A stretch of 64,000 nt of DNA from Alloyangia pacifica. Lineage in GTDB: Bacteria > Pseudomonadota > Alphaproteobacteria > Rhodobacterales > Rhodobacteraceae. Under the pieces are notes generated by a model that was not told where the DNA came from, made no database searches, and saw only the letters and a program-made list of their open reading frames with translations. The stretch spans positions 124,001-188,000 of the forward strand of contig NZ_JAIVKX010000005.1 in assembly GCF_020524285.1 (NCBI RefSeq), written 5' to 3'. The position numbers were made by a program, and so were the translations under genes. Positions 7,046-34,351 of this stretch are shown piece after piece; position 1 is the first letter of the stretch; the number at the start of each line of letters is the position of its first letter.

Positions 7046-10000
7046 ATGAAGTCGATTTTGCACATTCTCGCGGGCGTCCTGCTCGCGCTGTCCCAGTCTG
7101 CGGCCGGGCTACGGGCGGAGGATGCCGCGCCCTACTGGGTGCGGGGGCCGCAAATCTCGCCCGACGGGTCCACCATCGCCTTCACCTACCGCGGCCAGAT
7201 CTGGATCGTGCCCAGCGAGGGGGGCGAGGCGGTGCCGCTCACCGAACGGCAGTTCCGCAGCACGTCGCCGGTCTGGTCCCCCGACAGCACCCGCATCGCC
7301 TTTGCCTCCGACCGGTTCAACATCGCCGACGTCTTCGTCATGTCGGTGGACGGCGGCGAGATCACCCGGCTGACCCGGCATTCCGGGGCCGAGCACCCGC
7401 TGGCGTTTTCCGCCGATGGCGCGGAGGTGCTCTTCTCCGCCGAGCGGCTCGGAACCCCGACCGCCGATCACCTGACCGGGCTCGGCATGATCGCGGGCGT
7501 GGTGATGCGCGTGCCCGCCGCGGGCGGGCGTCCCCGGCTGGTGATGCCGCTGCCCACCGGCCAGCTCGACGTCAGCCCCGATGGAAAGTCACTGGCCTAT
7601 GTCGACCGCACCTCGCCCGAGGTGGCCTGGCGCAAGCGCGAGATCTCGGACGGGACCACCGACATCTGGCTTTATGACACCGAGGCCGGCACCCATCGCC
7701 GCCTCACCGACTACCGCGGCAGCGACCGCAGCCCGGCCTTCTCGGCGGATGGCAGCGCGCTCTACTGGGCAACCGAGATGCCCGAGGCGGGGATCGCCGA
7801 TCCCGATGCCGCGCCGGAGACCTTCAACATCTGGCAAATGCCGCTCGCGGGGGAGAGGGCGCCGACCCGCGTCACTGCGCATGAGATGCTGCCCGTGCGC
7901 TTCGTCTCCGCCGCCGATGACGGCACGCTGGCTTATACCTATGACACGCAAATCTGGCGGCTTGATCCCGGTGCCGAGGCACCGGTCCGGGTGCCGGTGC
8001 GGATCCGGCAGGGCACGCTGCTCAAGGGTGAGGTCTACGGCGATCTCGGCGAGCAGATCACCGAGACGGCGGTCTCGCCGGACGGTATGGAACTGGCCGT
8101 CGTCGCGCGCGGCGACATCTTCGTGCTCTCGCCGCTCTCCGGCGAGGTGCGCCGCATCACCGACACGCCGCAGGCCGAGCGTTCGGTCAGCTACGGCCCG
8201 GACGGGCGGCGCCTGCTTTATGCCGCCGAGCGCACGGGCGACTGGGATATCTACCAGACCGCGCTGACCCGAGAGGAGGACGAGAGCTTCCTGCGCGCGC
8301 TGGCGCTGGAGGAGGCCCGGCTCATCGACACCGAGACCGACGCCCTGCAGCCCGCCTTTGCCCCGGATGGCGCGCGCGTCGCCTACCGCGACGACCGCAA
8401 CGCGATTCGCATCTGGGACGCCGCGAGCGGCGAAAGCACCGAGATCCTCCCCGACAGCGCCACCTATTTCTACGGCGAGGCCGAGTTCGACTTCGCGTGG
8501 TCGCCGGATGGGCGCTACATCCTCACCACCACCGGTTTCGCCTCGGCGAATACCGAGGTAGAGCTGATCGAGACCTTCGGAGACCACCTGCGCTACAATA
8601 TCTCGGACTCGGGTTTCGGCGATCAGGGGGCGGGCTTCAGCCCCGATGGCTCGGTGGTGTTCTGGGCCAGCGACCGCTTCTCGGAGCGCAACCTCGACGA
8701 ACACGGCGGCATGCAGGACGTGATGGCCGCCTATCTGACCCCCGAGGGTTACCTGCAGCGCGAGCTGGGCGAGGCGGCTGCCGGTTCGCCTGCCGGTATC
8801 GAGGCGGCGGGGGATGACGGGGATGGCAAGGACGCCGGAGCGCCGCTCGCGCCCGACTTTGACGGGCTGCGCTACCGGCGGGCCCGCGTCACCGGCGCGT
8901 CGGTCGTGCCGGTGCTGGCCGAGATGACGCCGGACAATTCGGGGATGCTGCTGGTCACCTTCCAGCCGACGGCCGGGGTCTTGACGGGCTCGGTGATCGA
9001 CATGGCGTCGCGGCGGCCGCGGCAGGTCTTCGCGACCTCGCTGGCGGGCATCGTCGACCTCGCGGTCAGCCCGGATCGCGGAACCCTGTATCTCATGCAT
9101 GCAGATGGGGTCGAGATCGTCGACGTGGCCAGCGGCGTAAGCGCCCCGGTGCCCTTCAACCTGCAGGCCAGCTACGATCCGGTGGCCGAGATGGAGTACC
9201 TCTTCGAGCACCACTGGCGTTTCGTTCAGTCGAAGTTCTACGACGCCGGGATGCACGGGGTGGACTGGCCCGAGATGCGGGACGCCTATGCGCGCTACCT
9301 GCCGCATCTGTCGCATTGGGAGGATTTCGCCGAGCTGATGGCCGAGATGCTGGGGGAACTGAACGCATCGCACCTCAACACCCGCTTCGCCTCGGACAGC
9401 CCAAACTGGGACAGCACCGCCGAGCTGGGGCTCTACTACGACACCCTGCACGACGGCCCCGGCGTGCGCATCGCCGCGGCCTTGCCGGGCGGGCCCGCCG
9501 CGCTGGTCGGGGCGCCACTGGCCGAAGGGGCGGTGATCCTCGCGGTCGACGGCGTCGAGATCGGACCGGAGGAGGACATTGCCCCGCTGCTCAACCGCCG
9601 GGCGGGCGACCTGCTGCGGCTGACCGTGCAGCCGGCAGGGGTCGGAGAGGCCACGGATGTCACCCTGCGGGCCGCCCCGCCCGGCACCGAGCCCGAGCTG
9701 GCCTACGCGCATTGGGTCACGACGCGCCGCGCCATGGTGGAGGAGCTCTCCGGTGGGCGGCTCGGCTACACCCATGTGCGCAAGATGGATGATGCCTCTT
9801 TCCGGCAGGTGTATTCGGACCTGATGGGCAAGGCGCTGGACAAGGAGGGGGCGATCGTCGACGAGCGCTTCAACTTCGGCGGCTTCCTGCACGATCAGCT
9901 CACCGCCTTTCTCACCGGCAGTCGCCACTCGGGGCTGGTGACCCGCAGCGGCGTCGACCTCGGCACCACGCCCTACACCCGCTGGGCCAAGCCGACGGCG

Positions 10001-12778: not shown

Positions 12779-13822
12779 ATGAGCGAGATCACAGCTGCCG
12801 CGGAACCCATGGGCCGTTTCGAGCGCCTGCTGACCCTCTGGGTGGCGCTGGCCATGGTGGGGGGCATCGTGATCGGGCTGATCGCGCCGGGGCTGGTGCA
12901 GGCCATCGCGGCAGCCGAGGTCGCCTCGATCAACCTCGTCGTCGCGGTGCTGATCTGGGCGATGGTCTACCCGATGATGGTGGGCGTGGACTTCGGCGCC
13001 GTCGCCGGGGTGGCGCGCCAGCCGAAGGGGCTGGTGGTGACGCTGGTGGTGAACTGGCTGGTCAAGCCCTTCACCATGGCGCTGCTGGCGGTGCTGTTCT
13101 TCGAGCATGTCTTCGCGCCGTGGATCGCGCCCGAGGATGCGGCGCAATACGTCGCCGGGCTGATCCTGCTCGGCGCCGCACCCTGCACGGCGATGGTCTT
13201 CGTCTGGTCGCAGCTCACCCGGGGCGACGCCACCTACACGCTGGTGCAGGTCTCGGTGAACGACCTGATCATGGTGGTGGCCTTCGCGCCGATCGTCGCC
13301 TTCCTGCTCGGCGTTACCGAGATCGCCGTGCCCTGGTCGACGCTGGTGCTGGCGACGGTGCTCTACGTGGTGCTGCCGCTGCTGGCGGGGCTCGCGACCC
13401 GGCGGATGCTGGGCGAGCAGGAGGCGATCGACGCTTTCTCGGCCAAGGTCAAACCGCTGTCGATGATCGGCCTGATCGCCACGGTTGCGATCCTCTTCGG
13501 GCTGCAGGGCGAGGTGATCCTTGCCAAGCCGCTGGTGATCGCGCTCATCGCCGTGCCGATCCTGATCCAGAGCTACGGCATCTTCGCCCTAGCCTATGGC
13601 GCGGCCTTCCTGCTGAAGGTGCCGCACCGCATCGCCGCGCCCTGCGCGATGATCGGCACCTCCAACTTCTTCGAACTCGCGGTGGCCGTGGCGATCAGCC
13701 TCTTCGGCCTCAACTCCGGCGCCGCTCTGGCCACGGTTGTCGGCGTGCTGGTCGAGGTGCCGGTGATGCTCTCGCTGGTGGCCTTCGCCAACCGCACCCG
13801 CGCGCGCTTCCCGCAGGCGTAA
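12779..13822 (+). CDS. acr3: Arsenite efflux permease Acr3
   Basis: 347 residues, ten hydrophobic segments, the Acr3/BART-fold family that expels As(III) through the inner membrane. Seen: the essential cysteine context [19 protein letters not shown] in TM4 and the TM9 glutamate context [18 protein letters not shown]. The ATG at 12779 has GGAG about 10 bases upstream; the in-frame ATG at 12707 lies inside the promoter region. Followed by arsH after 17 bases, so transcribed together. Control by the divergent ArsR is inferred. Confidence 0.95.
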
Positions 13823-13839
13823 CACTCATGGAGGTCCAG

Positions 13840-14562
13840 ATGCCCGACACCCCCAACCTCTCCGAGGACTGCGTCCGGCCGACCGATTTCGCAGCGCTCT
13901 TCCCCGAGACTCGCAGCACCCACCGACCGCGTATCCTGATCCTCTACGGCTCCCTGCGCGAGCGCAGCTTCTCGCGCTTCGCCGCCGAGGAGGCCGGGCG
14001 GCTGCTGGAGACATTCGGCGCGGAGGTGCGCATCTACGACCCGCGCGGCCTGCCGCAGACCGACACCACCGGGCCGGATCACCCCAAGGTCGCCGAGCTG
14101 CGCGACCTGGTGAGCTGGTGCGAGGGCATGGTCTGGTCCTCGCCCGAGCGGCACGGCTCGATGACCTCGGTGATGAAGAGCCAGATCGACTGGATCCCGC
14201 TCTCGCTCGGCTCGGTGCGTCCGACGCAGGGCAAGACGCTGGCGGTGATGCAGGTCTGCGGCGGCTCGCAGTCGTTCAACACCGTCAACCAGCTGCGCAT
14301 CCTCGGGCGCTGGATGCGGCTGCTGACCATCCCGAACCAATCCTCGGTGGCCAAGGCCTGGGACGAGTTCGACGAGGCGGGACGGATGAAGCCTTCGCCC
14401 TATTACAACCGCATCGTCGACGTGATGGAGGAGCTGGTGAAGTTCACCCTGCTGACGCGCGACATCAAGGAGCACCTCGTCGATCGCTACTCGGAGCGGG
14501 TCGAGAGCCATGCCGAGCTGTCGGCGCGGATGAGCCAGGCCAAGGCGGCGGCCCCGGAATGA
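13840..14562 (+). CDS. arsH: ArsH NADPH-dependent FMN oxidoreductase
   Basis: 240 residues, a flavodoxin-like protein that oxidises trivalent organoarsenicals to less toxic pentavalent forms. Seen: [23 protein letters not shown] (FMN-binding GSLRERS) and [20 protein letters not shown], the ArsH hallmark. Of two in-frame starts, 13840 is chosen because GGAGG sits five bases before it, whereas 13828 has no ribosome site. Second gene of acr3-arsH-MFS. The presence of ArsH suggests exposure to methylated or aromatic arsenicals rather than arsenite alone. Confidence 0.95.
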
Positions 14563-14587
14563 CGGCCCGGACGTTGCGGGCGGGCGC

Positions 14588-15898
14588 ATGACACCGGCGC
14601 AGCGCGGGCCGAGCGCGGGCGGGCTGACCCGTGTCGGGGCCGGCATCGACCGGGCATGGCGGGCTATCGGGCTCGACCCGCACGGCTACGCGCAACGACA
14701 GCCGGAGAAGGCCGAGAGGCTGGCGATCTGGCTGCTCGGGCTCGGCCAGACCATCGGCTACGCGGGGATCTACTACATCTTCGCCGCCTTGCTCCTGGCC
14801 TGGGACGCGGCGCTGCCCTGGGGCAAGAGCTGGCTGACCTTCGCCTTCATGTGCGCGATCCTCACCGGGGCTGCGGTCTCTCCGCTGGCCGGGCGCTGGG
14901 TGGACCTTGGCCGCGGCCGCTGGCTGCTCGGCGGCGGCATGGCCCTTGGCGCCGGCGCGCTGCTGCTGCTGGGCACGGCGCAGAGCTACGCGGTGTTCCT
15001 GCTCGCCTGGCTCGTGCTCGGCGCGGCGCAGGGCGCAAGCCTCTACGAGCCCTGCTTTGCCTTTGTCACCCGCACCACCGGCGCGCGGGCGCGGCGCAAC
15101 ATCACGCTGATCACCCTCGTGGCGGGCTTTGCCTCGAGCCTGGCCTACCCGTCGGGCGCCTTCCTGGCCGAGAGCGTCGGCTGGCGCGCGGCGGTGTGGA
15201 TCTTTGCCGGGGTGGTCGGGCTGATCGGCGCCCCGGCGCTGCACGCCGGGGCCACGATGCTTGAATGCTGCCCGGTCGTCCCGCGGGGTGCCGAGGCGCG
15301 CGCGCCGGACGAGGCGGCCTATCGCGCCGCGCGGGCCCGCCCCGAGTTCTGGCTGATCTTTGCCGCCTTTCCGCTGTTCGGCTTCACCGGGGGCATGGTG
15401 ATTGCCCATGTGATCCCGATCCTGACGGGGGCAGGGCTGAGCCTGCCGCAGGCGGTGCTGGCGGCGTCGCTTTTCGGTCCGATGCAGGTGGCGGGGCGGC
15501 TGACCACCATGCTCCTCGGTCACCGGGTCCGGCCCCTCACCGTGACGGCGGTCTCGTTCAGCGGGCTGGTCTGCGCGGTGCTCGTGCTGCTGGTGGTGGT
15601 GCCGCGCGTGCCGATGGCGGCCTATCTCTTCGCGCTGCTCTTCGGGGCAAGCTACGGGCTGGTGAGCATTCTCAAGCCGGTGGTGACGGTGGAGGTGCTG
15701 GGGCCCCGGGGCTACGGCCGGATCGCCGGAGTGATGGCGGTGCCCTTCCTCGTGGCCATGGCCATTGCGCCGCAGGTCGGCTCGGTGATCTGGCGGCTCG
15801 GCGGCTACGACCTTGCGCTGAGCGCGGGGCTCGCCGCGGCCGCGCTTGCGCTGGCCGCGCTGCTGGTGCTGATCGGGCGGGTGCGGCGGGGCCGGTGA
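14588..15898 (+). CDS. MFS transporter in the arsenic operon
   Basis: 436 residues, about 12 membrane segments. Located 25 bases after arsH on the same strand, so probably part of the arsenic-resistance transcript. Seen: FAALLLAWDAALPWGKSW in TM1-2, VSPLAGRWVDLGRGRWLL (motif A-like) and an unusual cysteine pair in the central loop (MLECCPVVPRG, about residues 222-228). It resembles general MFS proteins of the DHA/OFA kind; ArsJ, a known arsenic MFS, normally sits beside a GAPDH gene, which is absent here. A role in organoarsenical export is inferred only from position. Confidence 0.8.
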   Translation: MTPAQRGPSAGGLTRVGAGIDRAWRAIGLDPHGYAQRQPEKAERLAIWLLGLGQTIGYAGIYYIFAALLLAWDAALPWGKSWLTFAFMCAILTGAAVSPLAGRWVDLGRGRWLLGGGMALGAGALLLLGTAQSYAVFLLAWLVLGAAQGASLYEPCFAFVTRTTGARARRNITLITLVAGFASSLAYPSGAFLAESVGWRAAVWIFAGVVGLIGAPALHAGATMLECCPVVPRGAEARAPDEAAYRAARARPEFWLIFAAFPLFGFTGGMVIAHVIPILTGAGLSLPQAVLAASLFGPMQVAGRLTTMLLGHRVRPLTVTAVSFSGLVCAVLVLLVVVPRVPMAAYLFALLFGASYGLVSILKPVVTVEVLGPRGYGRIAGVMAVPFLVAMAIAPQVGSVIWRLGGYDLALSAGLAAAALALAALLVLIGRVRRGR

Positions 15899-31218: not shown

Positions 31219-31508
31219 GATCTAGGAGCTGCCTGCCGGATAGGTGGGTGCTGGAGTTGAGAAATTTGCCGCGCTGCGGCGTCTGGTCTCGACCTAGCGC
31301 GGCGGCGCGAGCCGTGTCAATTCACAACTCCAAGGGCTTCCGCGACCGGCCCGACGTCGCCTGCCCAAGGCCCGCGCGCGCCGGATAGGCGCTCACGGAA
31401 CGACCGGATCACGGGCGCGAACCATCCCGGCTCGCTTCTTTGGGGTGCGTTTTCGTGGTATGCTCGCGCCATTCTTTTGAAAATGCATTTCTTCCGGGGA
31501 GGGTTTTC
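31219..31508. other. Divergent intergenic region, 290 bases
   Basis: Holds the promoters for the isochorismate pair (minus strand) and for the micro-ORF/lipase-subtilase unit (plus strand). A TATGCT hexamer at 31459-31464 is a possible plus-strand -10 element. AAATGCATTT (31481-31490) is a perfect 10-base palindrome just before the micro-ORF ribosome site. No further gene or RNA was recognised. Confidence 0.45.
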
Positions 31509-31631
31509 GTGAACCGATCAGCACTCGGCCAGGCGCGCAACTTTTCTGTGCGCCGCTCTCTTCCGGCCCGCGCGGCGACGCGGAACCGGTCCAGCGACGC
31601 CGAAACCTCTCCGCTCTACGGCGCCTTCTAG
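31509..31631 (+). CDS. Small ORF coupled to the lipase-subtilase gene (40 codons)
   Basis: Unrecognised 40-residue frame that begins with GTG five bases after a very strong ribosome site (GGGGAGGG, 31496-31503) and ends with TAG three bases before the fusion gene ATG. The peptide is basic in its first two thirds (many Arg, motif FSVRRSLPARAATRNR) and ends SPLYGAF. The fusion gene has no ribosome site of its own, so ribosomes finishing this frame probably re-initiate there. It may be a leader that sets expression, or a small partner or inhibitor of the enzyme. An in-frame upstream ATG at 31440 lacks a ribosome site. Confidence 0.6.
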   Translation: MNRSALGQARNFSVRRSLPARAATRNRSSDAETSPLYGAF

Positions 31632-31634
31632 GCC

Positions 31635-34343
31635 ATGAGGTTCCAAGACGACTGGGTCGCGCAACGCGGGTTCTCCTGGAAGACGGCCTATGCGCTGGCC
31701 TCCGCCTGCAAGCTCTCCTACGAGACCACCGCCGAGACCAGCCGGGTGCTGGGGCAGGTCTGGCGGGTGCACGGCCGGGTGTTCCGCGCCGGCACCACCG
31801 AGGGGCTGCTGGCCATGGGGCCGCGCTCGGCGGTCCTCGCCTTTCGCGGCACGCAGGGGCTCGCCGACTGGATGAGCAACCTGCAGATCCCGCCTGCCAA
31901 TTCCGCCGCCTTCGGCGCGGCCATCCACAGCGGATTTCTCGATGCCTACGTCTCGGTGGCGCATCTCGTGGCACGCGCCGTCGAGGAGGCGGGCGGGCGC
32001 ACGCTCTGGTTCACCGGGCACAGCCTCGGCGGTGCGGTCGCCGTGGTCGCCGCGGCGCATCACCGGGCGCGGCGGCCCGCCGGGGTGGTCACCTTCGGCC
32101 AGCCGCGGATGCTGTCGGACGGGGCGGCGGGCTTCATGCGCGCGACCTTCGGCACCAGCTACGTGCGGGTGGTCAACGCCGACGACATCGTCGCGCGGAT
32201 CCCGGTGATCTACCGGCACACGGGGCGCCTGCTGCATTTCAACTTCGCCGGCGCGCTGGAGGCCGAGAACGGCTTCGAGAGCGCGGTCGAAGAGGCGGCG
32301 AGCGACGGCCCGCCGCCGGTCAGCCCTGAAGAGGAGGCCGCCATCGAGGAGGCCGCCGAGGCCGCCCGCATCGCCGCCCCCGTCGGGCCGGAGTTCGAGT
32401 CCCTCGAGGGCCGGGCCGAGGACGGGGCCGATGTCGCGGTCGAAGGGGTGATCCCCGGCGTCGCGGCGCACCGGATCGACGCCTACGTGCAGCTCATGCG
32501 GGTGCGGGCGCTGGCCACCGAGGCCGAGGACGACACGTTCGACGATGGGGCGCGGGCGCTGCTGCGCGGCCGCGAGGACGACACCGAGGGCGGGCTCGAG
32601 ACCATGTTCGAGATGGAGCTCGAGGGCGACGCACCCCCGCCTCAGGTGCCGCGCCAGCCCGTGGTGCTCCGCCTGCGCAGCGACGCCTGGGTGCCGCCCG
32701 CCGGCATGCCGGTGTCCTCGCGCTTCGGCCAGTTTGCCACGGCGCTCGCCAGCGCGGCGGATATCGACGCGCTGCGGGCCGATCCCATGGTGGTTGCCAT
32801 CGAGGTCAGCCGCGAGGCGGGGATCGAGGAACTCGACCACTCGGTGCCCTTCGTCGGCGCGGCGGACATCCACCGCCCGCCGCTGGACGAGCGCGGCGAC
32901 CAGGCCATCGTCGGGCTCATCGACACCGGCGTCGACATCCTGCATCACGCCTTTCGCAAGCCGGACGGCCGCACGCGCATGCTGGCGATCTGGGACCAGC
33001 GCAGCGGCGGCGGCCTGACCCCGGCGGGCACCGATCCCGCCTTCACCCAGACTCACGGGCGGCTGTTTCTCGCGGGCGAGATCGACGCGATGATCGCCGC
33101 GCATGAGGCGGGCGCGGCAGAGGTGCCGATGCGTCTGCGCGACCTCGCCGGGCATGGCAGCCACGTCGCCGGTATCGCGGCGGGCCGCGCGGCGGGGCAG
33201 ATGGCCGAGGGCATGGCGCCCGAGGCGCCGATCCTCTGCGTCATGGCGGGGATCACCCAGGGGCCCGGCGAGCCGCCCAGCATCGGCTACTCGATGAGCC
33301 ACGTCGACGCGCTCGCCTTCCTGCGAAGGGCCGCGCAGGGCGGCACCGCGGTGCTGGCCGACCCGCGGCCCATCGCGATCAACGTCAGCCTCGGGATGAA
33401 CGCCGGCGCGCATGACGGCTCCACCACGCTCGAGGCCGCCTTCGACGCGATCACCGGCGGCGGGCGCGACCCGGACTGCGTGATCGTCAAATCCGCCGGC
33501 AACGAGCGTGGCAACGCGGGCCACGCCAAGGTCTCGGTCGCCGACGGGTTGCTGGCCGAGCTCAAGTGGGCCAGCTCGGCGCGGGTGCGGGATGCGGATT
33601 ACTTCGAGGCCTGGGTCGACGGCATGGACGATGTCGCCTTCCGGCTGATCACCCCGGCGGGGCAGGCGACCGACTTCGTCTCCTTCGATGCGCCGGAGAT
33701 CGAGGCGACGCTCGGCGGCAATCTCTGCAGGCTGTTCCTCAAGGAACTGCACCCCGACAATGGCGCGCACCGGCTGGTGATCTCGATCCGCGCGCAGCCC
33801 GACCCGATCCAGGTGGGCGGCTGGACGCTCGAGATGCACGGCCGCCAGATGCTCAGCGCCGCGCGCGAGGTGCACATCTGGGTCGAGCGCACCAACGCGC
33901 GGGCCATCCGCTTCGACACGCAGGATCCCGAGATGACGCTCTCCGTCCCCGGTACCGCGCGCACGGTGATCACCGTCGGGGCCTGCAATTCCGAGACGCC
34001 TTCGCGGCTCAACGACAGTTCCTCCTGGGGCAACACCCGCGACGGGCGGCGCAAGCCCGAGCTCTGCGCGCCGGGCTTCCAGGTCCGCTCGGTGCAATCG
34101 GGCGGCACGGGGCATGACGAAACGCGGACGATGAGCGGCACCAGCATGGCCGCGCCGCATGTGACCGGGGCGATCGCGCTGGTCATGTCGCGGCGCCGCA
34201 AGCTCGGGCTGCCGCCGCTCAACGCGGTGCAGTTCCAGACGGCGCTGATCCGGACGGTGCGCGGCTCACCCACGCATCACCACGTCGGGGCGGGCTACGG
34301 CGTGCTGGACGCGAAAGCGCTGTTCGACGAGCTGACCGGCTGA
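31635..34343 (+). CDS. Fusion protein: class 3 lipase + subtilisin-like protease
   Basis: 902 residues with two complete hydrolase domains. Lipase_3 (about 1-205): VLAFRGTQGLADWMSNLQ, nucleophile Ser130 in TGHSLGGAVAVV, Asp184 in NADDIVARIP, His195 in YRHTG. Acidic linker about 210-335. Peptidase S8 (about 400-895): Asp430 in VGLIDTGVD, His507 in GHGSHVAGIAAG, oxyanion Asn623 in KSAGNERG, Ser837 in SGTSMAAPHVTGA, with a large insert (about 640-770) before the serine. No signal peptide or RTX repeats, so probably cytoplasmic or delivered by a specialised route. No own ribosome site; coupled to the 40-codon frame. Target unknown; both triads look intact. Confidence 0.9.
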   Translation: MRFQDDWVAQRGFSWKTAYALASACKLSYETTAETSRVLGQVWRVHGRVFRAGTTEGLLAMGPRSAVLAFRGTQGLADWMSNLQIPPANSAAFGAAIHSGFLDAYVSVAHLVARAVEEAGGRTLWFTGHSLGGAVAVVAAAHHRARRPAGVVTFGQPRMLSDGAAGFMRATFGTSYVRVVNADDIVARIPVIYRHTGRLLHFNFAGALEAENGFESAVEEAASDGPPPVSPEEEAAIEEAAEAARIAAPVGPEFESLEGRAEDGADVAVEGVIPGVAAHRIDAYVQLMRVRALATEAEDDTFDDGARALLRGREDDTEGGLETMFEMELEGDAPPPQVPRQPVVLRLRSDAWVPPAGMPVSSRFGQFATALASAADIDALRADPMVVAIEVSREAGIEELDHSVPFVGAADIHRPPLDERGDQAIVGLIDTGVDILHHAFRKPDGRTRMLAIWDQRSGGGLTPAGTDPAFTQTHGRLFLAGEIDAMIAAHEAGAAEVPMRLRDLAGHGSHVAGIAAGRAAGQMAEGMAPEAPILCVMAGITQGPGEPPSIGYSMSHVDALAFLRRAAQGGTAVLADPRPIAINVSLGMNAGAHDGSTTLEAAFDAITGGGRDPDCVIVKSAGNERGNAGHAKVSVADGLLAELKWASSARVRDADYFEAWVDGMDDVAFRLITPAGQATDFVSFDAPEIEATLGGNLCRLFLKELHPDNGAHRLVISIRAQPDPIQVGGWTLEMHGRQMLSAAREVHIWVERTNARAIRFDTQDPEMTLSVPGTARTVITVGACNSETPSRLNDSSSWGNTRDGRRKPELCAPGFQVRSVQSGGTGHDETRTMSGTSMAAPHVTGAIALVMSRRRKLGLPPLNAVQFQTALIRTVRGSPTHHHVGAGYGVLDAKALFDELTG

Positions 34344-34351
34344 GCCGGGCC

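What the first reader, a model, noticed from the sequence alone, without database searches (positions are those of the whole stretch)
31635..34343. Lipase-subtilase fusion with two intact catalytic triads
One 902-residue chain carries a class 3 lipase (Ser130-Asp184-His195) and a subtilisin-like protease (Asp430-His507-Ser837) joined by an acidic linker, without signal peptide. Combining membrane- and protein-attacking domains in a cytoplasmic protein suggests a toxin, effector or abortive-defence enzyme kept silent until triggered; the protease could release or activate the lipase. I do not know a described system with this architecture.
Basis: partly seen in the sequence, partly recalled or inferred. 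Interest (0 to 1): 0.7.

Follow-up and report, generated by a model that had tools for sequence, protein, structure and literature searches.

The report
Fused lipase-protease from modular lysis loci
A marine-type bacterium carries one protein that joins a fat-splitting enzyme to a protein-cutting enzyme; some relatives of the gene sit beside genes for cell-death-type proteases or wall-cutting enzymes, so it may help the cell break itself open when triggered, although nothing has been tested at the bench.

Summary
In detail: one 902-aa ORF joins a class 3 lipase to a subtilase. The fusion is real. I found 8 distinct full-length loci, all in one GTDB-type family (39-83% identical to the window protein), with S130, D184, D430, H507 and S837 kept in 8 of 8 and no N-terminal hydrophobic signal in 8 of 8.

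Corrections: His195 is probably not the lipase histidine (His279 fits better); the protease is a Csp-type subtilase with a pro-region-like segment.

New: 6 of 8 loci have a conserved ~260-aa partner gene nearby; the window genome has none. In 3 of 8 the pair lies with CHAT, CHAT-STAND, caspase-like or trypsin genes. Without the fusion, 7 of 9 partner loci read have a protease and/or wall hydrolase; in three, GDSL hydrolase, caspase, M15 peptidase and partner form one chain.

Best reading (0.5): the protease+lipase unit of a modular, triggered envelope-lysis (conflict/cell-death) system; the window copy is solitary but under purifying selection. Pore formation by the partner rests on a weak, profile-dependent Cyt1Aa match. 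A defence role is untested.

The parts
31635..34343 (+). lipase-subtilase fusion gene, 902 aa
31635..32513 (+). lipase half (residues 1-293); Pfam Lipase_3 core 67-192; S130 (32022-32024), D184 (32184-32186), H195 (32217-32219), candidate catalytic H279 (32469-32471)
   Evidence: the His assignment is inference from the recalled triad of Thermomyces lipase
32247..32657 (+). residues 205-341, net charge -26, containing the conserved block 269-293
32658..32834 (+). residues 342-400, pro-region-like segment: alignments with 4 of 5 stand-alone subtilases begin at residues 343-355, their own residues 21-32 (the fifth begins at 280)
   Evidence: role as prodomain is inference
32835..34340 (+). subtilase half, Csp-type; D430 (32922-32924), H507 (33153-33155), S837 (34143-34145)
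33504..33926 (+). residues 624-764, the region between the Asn623 and Ser837 regions, aligned through in both PDB alignments shown (chains named germination protease and CspB), where CspB has its jellyroll insert
   Evidence: exact borders are mine
31332..34350 (+). approximate extent of the inserted cassette; in three same-genus genomes the flanking genes stand 153, 165 and 443 bp apart without it
   Evidence: borders from the 153-bp site (L096)
31428..31443 (+). block CGGCTCGCTTCTTTGG upstream of the gene, 15 of 16 bases the same in window, L032 and L100; possible promoter element
   Evidence: read from the alignment; function not tested

Best explanation
The gene encodes the protease-plus-lipase unit of a modular, triggered envelope-lysis system (conflict or programmed-cell-death type). 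Proposed working: the Csp-type subtilase folds, processes itself at the end of its pro-region (about residue 400) and is held silent by the retained pro-region, as CspB is. In complete loci an upstream sensor protease (CHAT/CHAT-STAND, caspase-like or trypsin) relieves the block. The subtilase then makes site-specific cuts, in its own acidic linker (freeing the lipase) and/or in the ~260-aa partner, a possible membrane-active protein, and the lipase attacks phospholipid; with the wall-cutting enzymes of some loci this opens the envelope. In the window the partner is missing and the genome has no CHAT, C14 caspase or NucA match, so this copy acts alone or with unrecognised genes. Shown: architecture, conserved residues, Csp-type assignment by sequence, linkage to the partner, company of conflict-type proteases and wall hydrolases in part of the loci, purifying selection. 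Inferred: silencing by the pro-region, cleavage targets, lipid substrate, lytic outcome, defence purpose.
For: Fusion in 8 distinct loci, catalytic residues invariant. Protease half: the 8 PDB matches at E<=1e-15 are 7 chains named CspB or germination protease and one 'S8 family peptidase' from an entry that also holds a germination protease; CspB keeps its prodomain bound, is inhibited by it, and its activity is needed for efficient cleavage of the wall-hydrolase zymogen SleC (PMC3567191, passages). Partner directly downstream in 5 of 8 loci, 4.7 kb away in a sixth; in 394 family genomes 5 have the fusion, 8 the partner, 3 both, hypergeometric P=5.4e-5, not corrected for relatedness. Company: L035 CHAT-nSTAND1 + CHAT; L036 trypsin; L058 C14-like membrane protein (17.1 bits, under the cut-off of 21.4) + GH19/PG-binding. 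Partner without fusion: L081-L083 GDSL-C14-M15-partner in one chain; L085 GDSL-amidase-M15 and trypsin; L087 amidase-M15 and trypsin; L086 CHAT, GH108, TIR-nSTAND1-WD40; L080 trypsin. Related stand-alone subtilases fused to a lysozyme domain (L037, L060) or an LCAT-like hydrolase (L059), beside patatin (L037) or PLD (L059). dN/dS 0.22-0.33; 46 unique changes in the window, 54 in L032, 80 in L100.
Against: No activity, toxicity or phage data. 5 of 8 loci showed no CHAT, caspase, trypsin or STAND gene among the neighbours examined: window (9 neighbours), L033 (6 and the partner), L034 (4; one is an M32 carboxypeptidase), L032 and L100 (neighbours only compared with the window's). 2 of 8 have no partner. 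Only 3 of 10 stand-alone subtilases scanned carry a lytic domain on the chain. In 2 of 9 partner loci without the fusion (L084, L088) no protease or wall hydrolase was recognised (not every neighbour scanned). Three phylum-level subtilase relatives, L067-L069, begin with signal-peptide-like segments. The Cyt1Aa match is weak and fails with three other queries. Both structure predictions failed (mean pLDDT 39.5 and 31.1), so pro-region, lipase His and partner fold are unconfirmed.
Confidence: 0.5

Rival explanations
1. A non-classically exported degradative or inter-bacterial enzyme: the two hydrolases digest lipid and protein of competitors or debris after release by lysis, vesicles or an unrecognised route.
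For: Solved Lipase_3 relatives are largely extracellular fungal lipases (names; 'fungal' recalled); L067-L069 have signal-peptide-like N-termini.
Against: No N-terminal signal in 8 of 8 fusion homologues; Csp-type subtilase; CHAT/STAND/caspase/trypsin genes beside 3 of 8.
Confidence: 0.15
2. A host-serving lysis switch (release of gene transfer agents, prophages or vesicles) rather than phage defence, as LypABC is in Caulobacter.
For: LypABC, an immune-like system with two peptidases, is required for GTA-mediated lysis in an alphaproteobacterium (PMC13236601, abstract and section 9); syntenic site and purifying selection in the window's genus.
Against: Empty site in 3 of the 6 same-genus loci compared. 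I did not look for a GTA cluster.
Confidence: 0.15
3. An intracellular lipid-turnover or stress enzyme in which the subtilase only processes or disposes of the lipase; no killing role.
For: Window and L034 copies stand among metabolic genes; the window gene is kept under purifying selection though the partner is missing.
Against: Patchy (5 of 394 family genomes); partner and conflict-type proteases in other loci.
Confidence: 0.15
4. The partner is an immunity or chaperone protein for the fusion rather than a second effector.
For: Directly downstream in 5 of 8 loci and conserved.
Against: Absent from the window genome and from G239, which both keep an intact fusion; present without the fusion in 5 of the 8 carrier genomes; fused to caspase and M15 domains in L081-L083; matches Cyt1Aa weakly, E=0.0032, 0.0054 and 0.03 with three overlapping profiles, not at all with A5, A6 or one single sequence.
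Confidence: 0.1

Closest known systems
CspB/Csp germination proteases activating the cortex hydrolase SleC
   Same: Best solved matches of the protease half, aligned through the insert region; a protease upstream of an envelope-lytic enzyme (PMC3567191, passages)
   Different: Clostridial spore proteins without a lipase; here fused to a class 3 lipase in an alphaproteobacterium
Kaur et al. 2020 'System 3' (NucA endonuclease + trypsin, sometimes S8, EAD1-linked lysozyme or papain-like wall peptidase)
   Same: Mostly alphaproteobacterial; proposed proteolytic cascade with trypsin and S8 domains and wall-attacking effectors (PMC7159879, section 32)
   Different: No NucA match in the window genome; no EAD1 match in the three L036 proteins scanned; the word 'lipase' does not occur in the text
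CARD-NLR defence systems and LypABC
   Same: Protease-dependent lysis; the paper says phospholipases or endonucleases replace gasdermin in some variants (PMC13236601, section 9)
   Different: No CARD identified here; the only STAND gene next to a fusion is the CHAT-nSTAND1 gene of L035; no Csp-type subtilase in the parts of the paper I saw
Nuclease-protease pairs of Hachiman/AVAST (Tuck et al. 2025)
   Same: A protease paired with a pro-effector, shared between immune systems (PMC12799240, passages)
   Different: Trypsin-like protease and DNase there; subtilase and lipase in one chain here; 'lipase' 0 hits in that text
Fungal gasdermin HET-Q1 with subtilisin-like HET-Q2
   Same: Subtilisin-like protease likely to cleave a membrane-attacking protein (PMC12881547, passage)
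   Different: Two separate proteins, gasdermin effector, eukaryote; the partner here is not shown to form pores

Membership tests
Lipase_3 (class 3 lipases) | Pfam score above the curated cut-off, GxSxG nucleophile and Asp | tested here: met
   92.4 bits against 22; S130 and D184 in 8 of 8
Lipase_3 (class 3 lipases) | complete Ser-Asp-His triad | tested here: inconclusive
   H195 and H279 both invariant in 8 of 8; the five PDB alignments shown end at residue 192 and no listed match passes 198; model unusable
Csp-type subtilase | S8 triad and alignment through the inserted region | tested here: met
   D430, H507, S837 in 8 of 8
Csp-type subtilase | prodomain retained after autoprocessing, occluding the active site | not testable with these tools
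   only a pro-region-like segment 342-400 is indicated
Kaur System 3 | NucA (Endonuclease_NS) core | tested here: not met
   no PF01223 match in the window genome at E<=0.001; the same search rang in 4 of 14 control genomes
CHAT/caspase/STAND-controlled system (window copy) | CHAT, caspase or STAND gene in the system | tested here: not met
   0 CHAT and 0 Peptidase_C14 matches in the window genome; nSTAND1 gave 9 matches, best 31.4 bits, 2 over the cut-off, none on the window's contig
CHAT/caspase/STAND-controlled system (relatives) | CHAT, caspase or trypsin gene near the fusion | tested here: met
   3 of 8 loci: L035, L036, L058; the C14 match of L058 is under Pfam's cut-off
Cyt-type membrane-active proteins (partner gene) | significant profile match or Cyt fold | tested here: inconclusive
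   E=0.0032, 0.0054, 0.03 with three overlapping profiles; none with three other queries; no Pfam family over its cut-off; model unusable
Known anti-phage systems (PADLOC) | system-specific model match | tested here: inconclusive
   window protein: subtilase model PDLC03014 only, E=2.1e-26; of 10 relatives and neighbours, 3 subtilases match it, L058 also IetS at 16.9 bits, one CHAT protein matches BovA at 23.6 bits, 6 match nothing

The most novel reading that the evidence does not exclude
An undescribed modular envelope-demolition system of alphaproteobacteria: a constant ~260-aa, possibly Cyt-like membrane-active protein combined with interchangeable proteases (Csp-type subtilase, caspase, CHAT, trypsin), acyl hydrolases (class 3 lipase, GDSL) and wall hydrolases (M15, amidase, GH19, GH108), in which proteolysis switches on attack on membrane and wall together; the window's fusion is its protease-lipase module in one chain.
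Probability: 0.35. Interest if true: 0.8.

Novelty: new variant of a known kind. Interest (0 to 1): 0.55.

Why it matters
If right, it adds lipid attack and a Csp-type protease to the small set of protease-gated bacterial cell-death effectors (gasdermins, nuclease-protease pairs, LypABC), and supplies a conserved partner gene by which more such loci can be found. It would also tie spore-germination proteases, which unlock a wall hydrolase, to lysis control elsewhere. The window copy alone is a modest find; the family and its partner are the interesting part.

Tried and rejected
Assembly artefact: rejected (8 distinct loci). Secreted degradative enzyme: disfavoured (no N-terminal signal in 8 of 8), not excluded. 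Phage- or plasmid-borne gene: no relative in viral contigs for the fusion or the partner; the 7 phage-record hits match only the subtilase part; of 109 plasmid records with a match none covers 80% of the query. Upstream 40-aa ORF (31509-31631): considered as antitoxin or leader, rejected because the region is broken by insertions and deletions in L032 and L100. Block GTCAATTCACA upstream: first taken as the gene's promoter, rejected because it also lies in an empty site. EAD1/CARD in L036: no Pfam match at E<=1 in the three proteins scanned, not claimed. Structure predictions (window protein with a 2-row alignment; L032 partner alone): too poor to use, so no fold search was run. The genome-contig scan gave one relative.

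Literature: nine searches on architecture and context and one on Csp proteases. No title or abstract start that was listed showed such a fusion, but lists were capped (for example 20 of 9,136 papers), and subscription papers and preprints are not held. The most direct search, five hyphenated names, found 7 papers, none on this by title.

Full report
Observation. The ORF at 31635-34343 (+) encodes 902 residues. Pfam places Lipase_3 at 67-192 (92.4 bits, cut-off 22) and Peptidase_S8 in the second half (118.3 bits, cut-off 21.8). It is the only Lipase_3 match at E<=0.001 in its 5.7-Mb genome. The nine neighbours scanned are metabolic, transport or regulatory or unassigned: among them an isochorismatase and a chorismate-binding enzyme upstream on the other strand, a small protein without a match, a LysR regulator, an SDR enzyme and a sulphur transporter downstream.

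The fusion is real and restricted in the samples searched. Of 394 family genomes 72 had some match at E<=0.001 and 5, own included, the full-length fusion. Of 390 genomes of the order 15 passed E<=1e-20 and 2 were full length (own and G465). Of 385 of the class 3 passed E<=1e-40, and of 349 of the phylum 5 did; in both only the own one was full length. That makes 8 distinct loci: window, L032, L100, L033, L034, L035, L036, L058. Identity to the window protein is 83, 80, 51, 53, 55, 48 and 39% for L032, L100, L033, L034, L035, L036 and L058. Viral contigs gave none. NCBI files Salipiger under Roseobacteraceae; that the family used by the search tool is GTDB's Rhodobacteraceae is recalled.

Anatomy. 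Identity over residues 1-210 runs from 85% (L032) to 31% (L058), over 401-902 from 83% to about 45%. Between them lie a variable acidic stretch (211-268), a conserved block (269-293, 44-92%), a second acidic stretch (294-341) and a conserved segment 342-400 (46-90%). Alignments with four of five stand-alone subtilases begin at residues 343-355, at their own residues 21-32; the fifth, L062, begins at 280. So the fusion point is probably near 340 and 342-400 the subtilase pro-region. The PDB matches stop before that point.

The protease is Csp-type. Its half of the chain has 8 PDB matches at E<=1e-15 (3e-37 to 4e-21): seven named CspB or germination protease, one 'S8 family peptidase' from an entry that also holds a germination protease. 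Both alignments shown run through the region where CspB carries its jellyroll insert. CspB keeps its prodomain bound and inhibited, is said to cut SleC at a single site, and is needed for efficient activation of that wall hydrolase (PMC3567191, passages). A gated, site-specific protease is therefore more likely than a degradative one; that step is inference.

A partner gene. A protein of about 255-269 aa is encoded directly downstream of the fusion in L032, L033, L035, L036 and L100, and 4.7 kb away in L058: 6 of 8 loci. It is absent from the window genome and from G239 even at E<=0.1. It occurs in 8 of 394 family genomes, 3 of them among the 5 with the fusion (hypergeometric P=5.4e-5, without correction for relatedness). 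Between L032 and L100 its dN/dS is 0.32. No Pfam family reaches its cut-off, and the L032 member has no PHROG match. A profile of four members matches the cytolysin Cyt1Aa at E=0.0032, of ten at 0.0054, of nine at 0.03; profiles of two other sets and one single sequence give no Cyt match. I treat Cyt-likeness as a lead only.

The company it keeps. L035: CHAT-nSTAND1 and CHAT genes before the fusion on the same strand. L058: a membrane-type protein with a sub-threshold caspase match and a GH19/PG-binding protein. L036: a trypsin gene and two unassigned genes of 493 and 1546 aa, all on the fusion's strand. The other five loci show no such gene among the neighbours examined: window, L033 and L034 (L034 has an M32 carboxypeptidase), L032 and L100 (compared with the window's neighbours only). 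So 3 of 8 loci have conflict-type proteases. Partner loci without the fusion: I read the 5 remaining genomes (L080-L084) and 4 of the 36 plasmid records (L085-L088). L081, L082 and L083 encode GDSL hydrolase, C14 caspase, M15 peptidase and partner in one chain; L085 has GDSL-amidase-M15 and trypsin, L087 amidase-M15 and trypsin; L086 CHAT, GH108 and TIR-nSTAND1-WD40; L080 a trypsin protein. L084 (four neighbours scanned) and L088 (annotation only) show nothing of the kind. That is 7 of 9. Of 10 stand-alone subtilase relatives scanned, 3 carry a lytic domain on the chain: lysozyme in L037 and L060, an LCAT-like hydrolase in L059; 7 carry none.

History at the site. In the genus, 7 of 20 genomes have the isochorismate synthase gene at E<=1e-30; I fetched 5 of the 6 besides the own one. 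With the window this gives three states of one site: empty (L096, L098, L099), fusion plus partner (L097, the same as L032, and L100), fusion alone (window). Comparison with L096 puts the cassette at about 31332-34350. Pairwise dN/dS of the fusion gene is 0.22, 0.33 and 0.29, and unique residue changes are 46 (window), 54 (L032) and 80 (L100), so the gene is under purifying selection; whether the window lost the partner or never had it is not shown, though the two other carriers at this site have it.

What the window lacks. Its genome has no CHAT, Peptidase_C14 or NucA match. nSTAND1 gave nine weak matches, two over the cut-off, none on the window's contig; that search also rang in 13 of 14 control genomes and says little.

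Mechanism. I judge a gated envelope-lytic effector the best reading (0.5). Proposed order: self-processing and silencing by the pro-region; release by an upstream protease; cleavage in the linker or of the partner; lipid attack, with wall hydrolases in some loci. Only the parts list, the conservation and the linkage are shown. Export, a host-serving lysis switch like LypABC, lipid housekeeping, and a partner that is an immunity protein are not excluded.

Known systems. Nearest are Csp/SleC (passages), Kaur's System 3 (section 32), CARD-NLR and LypABC (abstract and section 9), nuclease-protease pairs (passages) and HET-Q1/HET-Q2 (passage). The window copy fails the System 3 core test (no NucA). 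No listing of nine literature searches showed this architecture, with the limits told under Tried and rejected. Hence: a new variant of a known kind, protease-gated lytic effectors.

Noticed in passing
L081:8774-12163 (-); L082:8754-12134 (-); L083:9308-12694 (-): Chains of 1126-1129 aa carrying GDSL hydrolase, C14 caspase, M15 murein peptidase and the partner domain, next to a 720-738-aa gene (no Pfam match in L081 and L082).
   Followed up: partly
L059:8991-12917 (+) and 12918-15293 (+): A second kind of protease-lipid hydrolase fusion (subtilase, peptidoglycan-binding, LCAT-like) next to a peptidoglycan-binding phospholipase D protein.
   Followed up: partly
L037:8043-11102 (-), L060:2857-5745 (-): Related subtilases fused to a Phage_lysozyme2 domain; L037 has a patatin gene overlapping its end.
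   Followed up: partly
L037:11520-12227 (-), L060:6322-7593 (-): Neighbour proteins of both lysozyme-subtilases share a 50% identical C-terminal stretch of about 157 aa; unassigned.
   Followed up: no
L036:10512-15152 (-): 1546-aa protein with many hydrophobic stretches (by eye) and no Pfam match at E<=1, just upstream of the fusion gene.
   Followed up: no
L085:1-4821: The partner-amidase-trypsin cluster on a Sinorhizobium fredii plasmid lies near genes annotated as an ABC-three component system.
   Followed up: no
window 31509-31631 (+): 40-aa GTG ORF ending 3 bases before the fusion's ATG; the region is not conserved as a frame in L032 or L100.
   Followed up: yes
L039:8694-10838 (-) and 7367-8683 (-): A related subtilase gene next to a metallo-beta-lactamase-fold gene, recalling the nuclease-protease pairs of other immune systems.
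   Followed up: no
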